Origin: Tepidamorphaceae bacterium
GTDB taxonomy: Bacteria; Pseudomonadota; Alphaproteobacteria; Rhizobiales; Tepidamorphaceae
Length of the DNA: 64,000 nucleotides
Reading direction: 5' to 3'
NCBI GenBank assembly: GCA_028279445.1
Contig: JANQNT010000024.1
Span: 62,001-126,000, forward strand
The notes below the pieces were generated by a model. It searched no databases. It was not told the DNA's origin and worked only from the letters and a program-made list of their open reading frames with translations. The stretch's first letter is position 1. Each line of letters begins with the position of its first letter. The position numbers and the translations under genes are program-made. Below, one piece after another: positions 14,191-18,070 of the stretch.

Positions 14191-15615
14191 TTAACCAGCG
14201 GTCGCGCTCTTGCCGGTGGAGAAGGCCGGCACCGCCATGCCGGCGCGCGGCGGCACGTCGTCGCCGCTCTCGCCCTTTTCCAGCCGCGCGATGACGCGAA
14301 ACGCAACGATGACCGCCAGAACGCCGAAGACGAGCCCGCCGAAAGCCTGTCCGAGCAGAGCGCCGGGTGCCCCGAGGACCATCGCGCCAAGCCACACCAG
14401 CGGAATGGTGCCCAGCGTCGCGCGGCCCCAGTTGAACAGCGTCGAATACCCGGCAAACCCGAGATTGTTGAAGGCGGCGTTGGCCACGAACAGCATGCCG
14501 TTGAAGACGAAGCCGCCGGCAACGAACAGGCAGAAGAAGGAGACCAGTTCGCCGGCCGGACCGGAGATGCCGAAGGCGGCCACGATCAACTGGTTGCAAG
14601 CCGCCAGCAGCGCCCAGACGACCAGCGTGTAGGCCAGCGTCAGCATCTGCGCGTCGCGTAGCGTGCGGCGCACGCGGTCGAAGCGCTGCGCGCCGAAATT
14701 CTGGCCGACGATCGGCCCCACCGCGCCCGACAGGGCGAACAGGAAGCCGAAGGCGAACGGAATGAGGCGGCCGATGACGGCCCAGCCGGCAACCGCTGAA
14801 TCGCCGAACTCGGCGATTGACCGCGTGACGAAGGCGTTGCCGACCGGCGTCGCCACATTGGTCAGCACCGCGGGCAGGGCGATCGCCCAGATCGCCGTCA
14901 GGTGCCGCAGCGTTTGCGCCAATCTCGGACGCGCGACCAGATCGTTGACGCGCACGGCTCCGTACAATCCGACCAGTGCCAGCACCATCCGCGACAGGAT
15001 CGAGGCGATCGCCGCCCCGTCGAGACCAAGCTCGAACCCGAAGATGAGGATCGGATCGAGGATCGCCGTCGCGACACCGCCGGACAGCGTCACCCCCATG
15101 GCCCGGCGCGCATCGCCGGCGGCGCGCAGAAAGGCGGACAGGATCATGCCCAGACCCAGCAGCGGCGTTGCCGGCAGCACGAAGAGCAGGAAGCGTTGGG
15201 CCAGCGCGTGCGTATTGCCCTCCGCGCCGAGCAGCGTCAGCAACGGTCCCAGCAATGGCAGCGCCAGTATCACCAGCAATACGCTCGCCACCAGCATGAA
15301 GACGAGCGCGGAAGCCGCAAGCCGTCGGGCCTCGGCGCGCTCGCCGGCGCCCAGTTGCCGCGAGACGAGCGCCGTGCCGGCGATCGCGATGCCGATGCAC
15401 ACGGAGGTTGCGAAGAACAGCACCGTGCCGGCATAGCCGATGGCCGCGGCGAGTTCGCGTTCTCCCAGTAGGCTGATGTAGAAGATGTTGGCCAGATCGA
15501 CCGCGAAGATCGCCATCAGCCCGACCGATGCCGTCGAGGTCATGACGGCGACGTGGCGCATCGTCGAACCGGTGGTGAAGACGCCCTGTTGGCGGCTACC
15601 GGGCGGACTGGCCAT
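14191..15615 (-). CDS. MATE-family efflux transporter
   Basis: A 474-residue inner-membrane cation-coupled drug/metabolite exporter with 12 hydrophobic helices in two six-helix halves (roughly residues 25-230 and 250-460). Characteristic MatE features are SRQLGAGERAEARR near residue 85 and VGQNFGAQRFDRVRR in the second half, the equivalent loop after helix 8. It lies upstream of the DUF937 gene on the same strand, with a 101-base gap. The substrate is unknown. The region 15616-15809 upstream contains only a terminator-like hairpin. Confidence 0.9.
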   Translation of the reverse strand: MASPPGSRQQGVFTTGSTMRHVAVMTSTASVGLMAIFAVDLANIFYISLLGERELAAAIGYAGTVLFFATSVCIGIAIAGTALVSRQLGAGERAEARRLAASALVFMLVASVLLVILALPLLGPLLTLLGAEGNTHALAQRFLLFVLPATPLLGLGMILSAFLRAAGDARRAMGVTLSGGVATAILDPILIFGFELGLDGAAIASILSRMVLALVGLYGAVRVNDLVARPRLAQTLRHLTAIWAIALPAVLTNVATPVGNAFVTRSIAEFGDSAVAGWAVIGRLIPFAFGFLFALSGAVGPIVGQNFGAQRFDRVRRTLRDAQMLTLAYTLVVWALLAACNQLIVAAFGISGPAGELVSFFCLFVAGGFVFNGMLFVANAAFNNLGFAGYSTLFNWGRATLGTIPLVWLGAMVLGAPGALLGQAFGGLVFGVLAVIVAFRVIARLEKGESGDDVPPRAGMAVPAFSTGKSATAG

Positions 15616-15716
15616 TGTTTCTCCGCACGCGACGGGACGGTTGCGCTGGTGTCAGCGCGATCCACCGCCGGGCGGCGGAAAAGGCACCAGAAGAAAAGGC
15701 ATCAGAAAAGGAAAAG

Positions 15717-15741
15717 GCATCGATGGTTGCCCATCGACGCC
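15717..15741 (-). terminator. Rho-independent terminator of the 52-residue lipoprotein gene
   Basis: On the minus strand a GGC(C/A)TCGATGG stem with a 4-base loop (core CCATCGA/TCGATGG plus three outer pairs, one mismatch) is followed by TTTTCCTTTTC. It lies 69 bases after the stop of the lipoprotein gene at 15810-15968. The T-rich tail includes repeated GATGCCTTTTC-like words (about 15673-15720). Confidence 0.55.
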
Positions 15742-15809
15742 CCTGAACCCCCGTTTGTACCTTGACCCGCTTATTCGCAGGGGCAAGCGTAAAACGTATG
15801 TCTGCTGAC

Positions 15810-15968
15810 TTACTTCCAGTCGGCGGCCGGCTCGACGGCGAGCGTCGGAGCGGACGTGACCGGAGCGTAGCCCTTGGTCTCAAGCGGCTGCTTGTGATGA
15901 TGGTCGCAGGCAGCAAGAGCAAGCGAAGCCGCAGCCACGCCAGCGATGATGAAGAAACGAGTCGTCAT
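15810..15968 (-). CDS. Small lipoprotein, 52 residues (microlipoprotein unit 1)
   Basis: A lipoprotein signal peptide MTTRFFIIAGVAAASLALAA is followed by lipobox Cys21 and a short mature peptide with a DHHHK cluster, then proline/alanine-rich sequence. It is expected to be acylated and anchored in the cell envelope; the function is unknown. The histidine cluster could bind metal, which is speculation. GGGGG lies upstream of the ATG. It shares its signal sequence pattern, ribosome site and upstream boxes with the 28-residue gene at 16336-16422, so the two look like a duplication. An open frame further upstream to 16100 runs through the promoter and is not used. Confidence 0.75.
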   Translation of the reverse strand: MTTRFFIIAGVAAASLALAACDHHHKQPLETKGYAPVTSAPTLAVEPAADWK

Positions 15969-16008
15969 TGTTGGGTACCCCCAAAGGTGAACCAAAGCGA
16001 GTCGGAAA

Positions 16009-16034
16009 GTATCGATGTGGCCGGGCGCGTGCAA
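16009..16034 (-). promoter_or_regulatory. Candidate promoter of microlipoprotein unit 1
   Basis: On the minus strand TTGCAC (16029-16034) and GATAC (within CGATAC, 16009-16014) form a -35/-10-like pair. The same TTGCRCGCG-N11-CGATAC arrangement occurs upstream of unit 2, with the same 41-base distance to the ATG. Conservation between duplicates is the main support. The 15-base spacer is shorter than the sigma-70 optimum. Confidence 0.5.
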
Positions 16035-16335
16035 CCGGCAGTTTCGCTGCGCCACGGATTCACCACAGGTTTGCGCAGCGACGATGTAAATCTGCAACAC
16101 AATGGCTGTGACGGCCGGAGGAGGGACGTCTTCGGCAATGTTGCCAAAGCACGGAAATTCAGCGCTTTCGGGATGATCGAAGGTCGCCCCACAACGTCAC
16201 GGGCAAGCCGGAACCGGTTGCTACCTGCGTTGTGGATCGATCAGGAACACGGCGGCGTCCTGTGGGATGCCGCCGTGTCGTTGTCCGCGAAAATCGCAAA
16301 GGTCGCGATCTTCCGAAACTGGGTGCGCGACGCCG
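16035..16335. other. Intergenic stretch between microlipoprotein units
   Basis: About 300 bases with no gene I can support. It contains a perfect 10-bp hairpin ACACGGCGGC/GCCGCCGTGT (16247-16256 and 16269-16278, 12-base loop) that could end the unit 2 transcript, though the following bases are not strongly T-rich. A possible minus-strand frame covering 15965-16192 reads through the unit 1 promoter and looks spurious. Confidence 0.4.
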
Positions 16336-16422
16336 CTACAGCCCGTATCCGAAGTGTTCGCAGCCGGCGAGTGCAAGTGAGGTCGCCGCCACGCATGCGA
16401 TGATATAGAGACGCGTGATCAT
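16336..16422 (-). CDS. Tiny lipoprotein, 28 residues (microlipoprotein unit 2)
   Basis: Reads MITRLYIIACVAATSLALAG, then lipobox Cys21, then EHFGYGL and stop. The signal peptide aligns position by position with the 52-residue unit 1 (M-T-R, II-A, VAA-SLALA-C), with the cysteine at the same residue 21. A GGGGGA ribosome site sits at the same distance from the ATG as in unit 1. The mature peptide would be only 8 residues including the acylated cysteine and a histidine. The gene is below usual size cut-offs and likely to be missed by gene callers. Function unknown. Confidence 0.6.
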   Translation of the reverse strand: MITRLYIIACVAATSLALAGCEHFGYGL

Positions 16423-16462
16423 TGTCTTGGTCCCCCGCATAGTGGTTTGTACACCCAAAAGC

Positions 16463-16488
16463 GTATCGGGGCAGCGGTTCGCGCGCAA
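16463..16488 (-). promoter_or_regulatory. Candidate promoter of microlipoprotein unit 2
   Basis: TTGCGC (16483-16488) and CGATAC (16463-16468) on the minus strand repeat the unit 1 arrangement (TTGCRCGCG, 11 bases, CGATAC) and lie at the same distance (41 bases from -10 to ATG). The leader is predicted at about 33 bases. Confidence 0.5.
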
Positions 16489-16615: not shown

Positions 16616-18070
16616 TTACGCCGCCTGCGTACCGCCGACGGTGATCTTGTCGATGCGCAAGGTCGGCTGACCGACGCCGACCGGTACGCCCTGGCCGTTC
16701 TTGCCGCAGGTGCCGATGCCCGGATCCAGCTCCATGTCGTTGCCGATCATCGGCACCCGGCGCAACGCGTCCGGCCCGTTGCCGATGATCATCGCGCCCT
16801 TGACCGGCCGGGTGATCCGGCCGTCCTCGATCAGGTAGGCCTCGGTGCACTGGAAGACGAACTTGCCCGAGGTGATGTCGACCTGTCCGCCGCCGAAGGA
16901 GGCCGCGTACAGGCCCTGCTTGACGGAGGCGAGGATCTCGTCCGGCGCGTGTTTGCCCGACAGCATGTAGGTGTTGGTCATACGGGGCATCGGGATATGG
17001 GCGTAGGATTCCCGCCGTCCGTTGCCGGTGGGCGCCATGCCCATCAGCCGCGCGTTCTGCCGGTCCTGCATGTAGCCGACCAGGCGGCCGTCCTCGATCA
17101 GCACCGTATTGGCGCTCGGCGTGCCTTCGTCGTCGATGGTCAGCGAGCCGCGCCGGTCGGCGATCGTGCCGTCGTCGACGACGGTGATGCCCGGCGAGGC
17201 GACCTGTTCGCCCATCAGTCCGGCGAAGGCGCTTTCGCCGCGGCGGTTGAAGTCGCCCTCAAGTCCGTGGCCAACGGCTTCGTGCAGCAGGATGCCGGGC
17301 CAGCCCGGACCGAGCACCACATCCGTCTCGCCCGCCGGCGCCGGCGCCGCCTCAAGGTTGACCTCGGCCTGCCGGATCGCCTCGTCGACGATGCCCCGCC
17401 AGGCCGCCGGCGTGACGAAGTCGGCGAAACCCTGCCGGCCGCCGGTTCCGTAGGAGCCGGTCTCCTGCCGATCCCCCTGGCCGGCAACCACCGCCACATT
17501 GAGCCGCACCAGCGGACGCACGTCGCGATAGATCGCGCCGTCGGCCCGCACGATCTCGACCACCTGCCAACTGCCCACCAGCGAAGCGGTGACCTGGCGG
17601 ACCTTGTCGGACGCGCCGCGCGCGTAAGCATCGATCTCTTCCAGCAGCTTCACCTTCGCGGCGAAGTCGGGCGCGCCGATGGGGTTGGCGTTTGCATAGA
17701 GATGCGTGTTGGTGCGTGCCGGCGCGGCGGCGAGGTTGCCGCTATGGCCGGCCTTCACCACCTGAACCGCTTCACCGAGCCGCTTGATGGCGCCGATGGA
17801 AATCTCGGAAGCGTGGGCGTAGCCGGCACTCTCGCCGGCGACCGCGCGCAAGCCCACCCCCTGGCTGGTGTCGAAGTTGGCGGCCTTCAGCCGGCCGTTG
17901 TCGAAGCTCAGCGATTCGCTTTGGCGATACTCGATGAACAGCTCGCCGTCATCGGCGCCGGCAAGCGCCTCGCCGACGAGCCTGGCGGCGGTTTCCGCGG
18001 CGATACCGTTGGCTTCCAGCAAGTTGGCTTCCGATGCGGCATTCGGCGCCTGCGCGGTCTGCTTGCTCAT
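16616..18070 (-). CDS. tldD: Metalloprotease TldD
   Basis: A 484-residue subunit of the TldD/TldE(PmbA) zinc protease that trims small peptides and, in some bacteria, toxin or RiPP precursors. The zinc site HEAVGHGLEGD is near residue 262 and the C-terminal glycine-rich barrel ends ...PTLRIDKITVGG. No tldE lies in the window; it may be elsewhere. The start at 18070 (MSKQTAQA) is favoured because upstream codons overlap the IalB-like gene region. The gap to the ialB-like stop is 23 bases, so the two are probably one transcript. Confidence 0.93.
   Translation of the reverse strand: MSKQTAQAPNAASEANLLEANGIAAETAARLVGEALAGADDGELFIEYRQSESLSFDNGRLKAANFDTSQGVGLRAVAGESAGYAHASEISIGAIKRLGEAVQVVKAGHSGNLAAAPARTNTHLYANANPIGAPDFAAKVKLLEEIDAYARGASDKVRQVTASLVGSWQVVEIVRADGAIYRDVRPLVRLNVAVVAGQGDRQETGSYGTGGRQGFADFVTPAAWRGIVDEAIRQAEVNLEAAPAPAGETDVVLGPGWPGILLHEAVGHGLEGDFNRRGESAFAGLMGEQVASPGITVVDDGTIADRRGSLTIDDEGTPSANTVLIEDGRLVGYMQDRQNARLMGMAPTGNGRRESYAHIPMPRMTNTYMLSGKHAPDEILASVKQGLYAASFGGGQVDITSGKFVFQCTEAYLIEDGRITRPVKGAMIIGNGPDALRRVPMIGNDMELDPGIGTCGKNGQGVPVGVGQPTLRIDKITVGGTQAA

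What the first reader, a model, noticed from the sequence alone, without database searches (positions are those of the whole stretch)
15810..16488. Duplicated microlipoprotein units with matched promoters
Two tiny minus-strand genes (52 and 28 residues) share a signal peptide with lipobox Cys at residue 21, a GGGGG ribosome site, and an upstream TTGCRCGCG-N11-CGATAC pair. Both have 41 bases from -10 box to ATG. Coding and non-coding parts are conserved while the mature parts differ (DHHHK tail versus EHFGYGL). This looks like a duplicated gene-promoter unit under one regulon, with the 28-residue member invisible to standard gene calling.
Basis: partly seen in the sequence, partly recalled or inferred. 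Interest (0 to 1): 0.75.

Follow-up and report, generated by a model that had tools for sequence, protein, structure and literature searches.

The report
Tiny lipoprotein gene with diverged duplicate
An alphaproteobacterium carries a real gene for a very small lipid-anchored envelope protein, found otherwise in only one relative, beside an old, shortened copy of it that may or may not still be used; it is an ordinary kind of gene, whose most interesting feature is an unusually well preserved untranslated leader.

Summary
Two minus-strand reading frames, 52 aa (15810-15968) and 28 aa (16336-16422), share a lipoprotein signal peptide with Cys21, a GGGGG ribosome site 9 nt before ATG, and an identically placed promoter. 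The boxes are better read as a sigma70-type TTGCRC-N17-TACNNT; the exact TTGCRCGCG-N11-CGATAC string occurs at only these two places in the 3.4-Mb genome, so no wider regulon is seen.

The 52-aa gene is very likely real: an ortholog (65% aa identity) lies at the same place downstream of tldD in one other genome of the family (a Rhodobiaceae MAG), with -35/-10 at the same spacing, a transcript leader 31/37 identical (tldD four-fold sites: 46%) and a conserved terminator. It was not found elsewhere in 397 genomes of the order.

The 28-aa unit was found only here. It is a partial duplicate (signal-peptide DNA 47/63 identical; background maximum 0.53), but lacks the conserved leader (2/21 identical), the mature part and the terminator. 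Whether it is under selection is undecided. "Non-coding parts conserved" holds for the boxes only. Verdict: a small clade-restricted lipoprotein gene plus an old truncated duplicate; new member of a known kind, modest interest.

The parts
15810..15968 (-). Unit 2: 52-aa prolipoprotein MTTRFFIIAGVAAASLALAACDHHHKQPLETKGYAPVTSAPTLAVEPAADWK; predicted mature part of 32 aa from Cys21
   Evidence: ortholog in G001; signal-peptide differences from the ortholog by codon position 5/1/13
15969..16005 (-). Unit 2 transcript leader, 31/37 identical in the ortholog; includes GGGGG ribosome site (15978-15982) inside a small possible hairpin TTGGG-GGTA-CCCAA (15971-15984)
   Evidence: element found in 2 of 397 genomes of the order
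16006..16011 (-). Unit 2 -10 hexamer TACTTT (inferred)
   Evidence: TAACTT in G001
16029..16034 (-). Unit 2 -35 hexamer TTGCAC, 17-bp spacer (inferred)
   Evidence: TTGCGC in G001 at the same spacing
15713..15744 (-). Unit 2 intrinsic terminator (14-bp stem, T-rich tail), also present in G001
16336..16422 (-). Unit 1: 28-aa frame MITRLYIIACVAATSLALAGCEHFGYGL; predicted mature part CEHFGYGL (8 aa)
16432..16436 (-). Unit 1 GGGGG ribosome site, 9 nt before ATG
16460..16465 (-). Unit 1 -10 hexamer TACGCT (inferred)
16483..16488 (-). Unit 1 -35 hexamer TTGCGC, 17-bp spacer (inferred)
16246..16279 (-). Strong GC hairpin downstream of unit 1, with only a weak T tail (not called as a terminator by the scan)
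16616..17050 (-). 3' part of tldD, the upstream neighbour in this genome and in G001

Best explanation
Unit 2 is a separately transcribed single-gene unit for a 52-aa prolipoprotein restricted to a small clade. A sigma70-type promoter (TTGCAC-N17-TACTTT) starts a transcript with a leader of about 30 nt; translation starts after a GGGGG site; Sec export, lipidation at Cys21 and signal peptidase II cleavage would leave a 32-aa, His-rich, probably unstructured lipid-anchored head; a terminator ends the transcript. Its function is inferred by likeness only: an envelope or vesicle surface lipoprotein of the Atu8019 / entericidin size class. Unit 1 is an old partial duplicate that kept promoter, ribosome site and signal peptide, and lost or never had the conserved leader, mature part and terminator; it more likely than not still yields a 28-aa prolipopeptide (8-residue lipopeptide CEHFGYGL). 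Shown: sequence anatomy, orthology and constraint of unit 2, homology of the two signal peptides. Inferred: transcription, translation, lipidation, location, function, and expression of unit 1.
For: Ortholog with the same neighbour tldD and 65% aa identity; leader 31/37 identical against 46% at four-fold sites of tldD, binomial about 3e-6; same -35/-10 spacing and a terminator in both genomes; signal-peptide differences from the ortholog at codon positions 5/1/13, P = 0.002. Unit 1 against unit 2: signal-peptide DNA 47/63, no indel, 15/21 aa, differences 3/3/10 by codon position, P = 0.016; background frames at most 0.53; boxes and ribosome site in identical register. That the coding part is far better kept than the leader (2/21) suggests selection on the unit 1 frame.
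Against: Unit 1 found in no other genome. Changes private to unit 1 fall 2/3/3 over codon positions, no sign of purifying selection on its own branch, though only 8 changes. No similarity of its downstream DNA to unit 2 above shuffles. No family model matches either protein above its cut-off. Only one ortholog of unit 2, from a MAG estimated 74% complete. No expression data.
Confidence: 0.6

Rival explanations
1. Unit 1 is a decaying remnant: the duplication copied promoter and signal peptide, the rest was lost, and the open frame of 28 codons is what is left by chance.
For: Private changes of unit 1 spread evenly over codon positions (2/3/3); leader and downstream parts not recognisable; absent from relatives.
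Against: Promoter boxes, ribosome site, start and lipobox are all intact with no indel, while the leader in between is beyond recognition; pairwise differences favour third positions (P = 0.016).
Confidence: 0.35
2. The pair works like the entericidin locus ecnA/ecnB: two neighbouring tiny lipoproteins, one antagonising the other.
For: Two adjacent tiny lipoprotein frames with a common signal peptide; the mature length of 32 aa equals that of Atu8019, annotated as an entericidin B homolog.
Against: No match to PF08085 in either protein or anywhere in the own genome at E up to 1; no helix predicted beyond residue 25, at low confidence; unit 1 is absent from the genome that holds the ortholog; Atu8019 itself showed no lytic activity.
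Confidence: 0.04
3. The two units are unrelated; signal peptides and promoters look alike because all such elements look alike.
For: Leader and downstream DNA unrelated; sigma70 boxes and lipobox signal peptides are constrained shapes.
Against: Signal-peptide DNA identity 0.75 against a background mean of about 0.38 and maximum 0.53; 0 of 2000 shuffles; exact box string at only two places in the genome.
Confidence: 0.05

Closest known systems
Atu8019 of Agrobacterium tumefaciens (entericidin A/B family small lipoprotein, outer membrane vesicle docking; PMC7296081)
   Same: Alphaproteobacterial small lipoprotein of 53 aa with lipobox Cys22 and a 32-aa mature part; unit 2 is 52 aa with Cys21 and 32 aa mature.
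   Different: Annotated as an entericidin; unit 2 does not match the Pfam entericidin model. The two sequences were not compared directly.
Entericidin locus ecnA/ecnB of Escherichia coli
   Same: Two neighbouring tiny lipoprotein genes.
   Different: No Pfam PF08085 match; here one member has a mature part of only 8 residues.
LptM (YifL; PMC10567701)
   Same: Very small lipoprotein; sub-threshold similarity of the signal-peptide part (13.2 and 13.4 bits against a cut-off of 27.7).
   Different: The match covers residues 1-21 only; LptM is conserved in full only in Enterobacteriaceae.
Unannotated small proteins of Sinorhizobium meliloti found by ribosome profiling (PMC10117765)
   Same: Precedent that sub-30-aa proteins and small predicted lipoproteins are translated and missed by annotation in Alphaproteobacteria.
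   Different: No sequence link shown.

Membership tests
Bacterial lipoproteins (signal peptidase II substrates) | Signal peptide with positive n-region, hydrophobic core and lipobox [LVI][ASTVI][GAS]C | tested here: met
   Sequence of both frames: MTTR..LAAC and MITR..LAGC; same in the ortholog
Bacterial lipoproteins (signal peptidase II substrates) | Lipidation and cleavage at Cys21 | not testable with these tools
   Needs palmitate labelling or mass spectrometry
Entericidin (PF08085) | Match to the Pfam model above its cut-off | tested here: not met
   No Pfam match for either protein; no match at E up to 1 in the own genome
LptM (NF047847) | Score above the curated cut-off and match beyond the signal peptide | tested here: not met
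   13.2 and 13.4 bits against 27.7, residues 1-21 only
Shared regulon with TTGCRCGCG-N11-CGATAC | Further genomic sites upstream of other genes, above chance | tested here: not met
   Exact string at two sites only; up to 2 mismatches 38 sites against 29 for the reversed control; window count at chance with 3 mismatches. Whether the three one-mismatch sites lie upstream of genes was not examined

The most novel reading that the evidence does not exclude
Unit 1 is a functional ultra-short lipoprotein gene whose product is an 8-residue lipopeptide, CEHFGYGL, and the conserved leader of unit 2 is a regulatory RNA or binding element that the duplicate shed, so that the two tiny lipoproteins are expressed under different controls.
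Probability: 0.12. Interest if true: 0.5.

Novelty: new member of a known kind. Interest (0 to 1): 0.25.

Why it matters
It documents a clade-restricted tiny lipoprotein gene that no protein-family library used here recognises, with an untranslated leader more conserved than neutral DNA, and a partial duplicate below gene-calling length. If unit 1 is expressed it would be an extremely short lipoprotein and a simple test of how little mature sequence one needs; otherwise it is an ordinary duplicate remnant.

Tried and rejected
Wider regulon of the boxes: not found. Leader element elsewhere in the order: only the two known sites. More distant homologs: the profile search of 397 order genomes gave, besides the known places, only weak hits with E 7e-4 or worse, which were not followed one by one; the peptide-pattern scan of the one-genome-per-species collection found one relative; IMG/VR and plasmids none. 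Lipoprotein frames downstream of tldD in 28 other genomes: none resembling it, one of them with hardly any downstream DNA held; a first script failed on a wrong file name and a second on too narrow a tldD motif. Rfam: nothing near gathering scores. Structure prediction: mature part not confidently modelled. Remnant of unit 1 in the G001 intergenic region: none above shuffles.

Full report
What is there. On the minus strand downstream of tldD lie two tiny frames: 28 codons at 16336-16422 and 52 codons at 15810-15968. Both encode a lipoprotein signal peptide ending in a lipobox with Cys21. The same bases read as TTGCRC, 17 bp, TACNNT, 37 nt from hexamer to ATG, a conventional sigma70-like layout for both. 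The simple promoter scan did not list them, so the promoter assignment is an inference, supported by conservation.

Is it more than chance. The signal-peptide DNA of the two units is 47/63 identical without indels, against a mean of about 0.38 and a maximum of 0.53 for other lipobox-like frames in 400 kb of the genome plus the window, and no shuffle reached it. The exact box string is found at only these two places in the genome. Outside the boxes and ribosome site the non-coding parts are not alike: 2/21 between -10 and the ribosome site; whole-register identity 32/78 is reached by 25 of 5000 shuffles, and local alignment is not significant.

Relatives. Among the 8 genomes held for the family, own included, one (G001) has an ortholog of the 52-aa protein; a contig of the same length in the named collection belongs to Rhodobiaceae bacterium isolate HKST-UBA55, a metagenome-assembled genome. 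The ortholog sits 283 nt downstream of tldD. Its promoter is TTGCGC-N17-TAACTT. The leader is 31/37 identical, while four-fold degenerate sites of tldD are 46% identical. The terminator is kept. The leader element (up to 3 mismatches) occurs in 2 of 397 order genomes, and the protein profile gave no other convincing match. The 28-aa unit is absent from the corresponding G001 interval and from the other genomes searched.

Is the 28-aa unit alive. For: intact promoter, ribosome site, start and lipobox in the same register; coding part kept while the leader is unrecognisable; differences from unit 2 are 3/3/10 by codon position, P = 0.016. Against: changes private to unit 1, with G001 as outgroup, are 2/3/3, so its own branch shows no purifying selection, though eight changes decide little; nothing recognisable of the mature part or terminator remains. 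I lean to a still expressible frame but hold the remnant reading at 0.35.

How it most likely works. Unit 2: own promoter, short conserved leader, translation, Sec export, lipidation at Cys21, 32-aa lipid-anchored head, not confidently folded in a two-sequence prediction. Its role is inferred by likeness of size and group to Atu8019, a 53-aa vesicle lipoprotein of Agrobacterium with a 32-aa mature part (PMC7296081). Membership in the entericidin and LptM families was tested and not met. The conserved leader holds a small possible hairpin around the ribosome site in both genomes, TGGG-GGTA-CCCA, which could tune translation; with two sequences and no varying pair in the shared stem there is no covariation to test.

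Novelty. Small lipoproteins missed by annotation are known in Alphaproteobacteria (PMC10117765). The finding is a new member of that kind with a partial duplicate. No regulon was found.

Noticed in passing
window 15969-16005 (-) and G001 (L043): The transcript leader of the 52-aa gene is more conserved than four-fold sites of the neighbouring tldD, and a CGACTCGTTT-like sequence recurs in the leader and just after the start codon.
   Followed up: partly
window 14191-15615 (-): A gene that looks like a MATE-type transporter (by eye, not searched) lies between the 52-aa gene and the next gene here, but is missing at that place in G001, where the gene for a MFxMLxQAQNGAAMENLSRQFGLHPDQ protein follows directly.
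   Followed up: no
genomes G003, G004, G006, G007: Four of the eight genomes of the family gave no tldD C-terminal match at E up to 1e-40, unlike the other four.
   Followed up: no
window 16246-16279 (-): A strong GC hairpin lies between the two units with only a weak T tail after it.
   Followed up: partly
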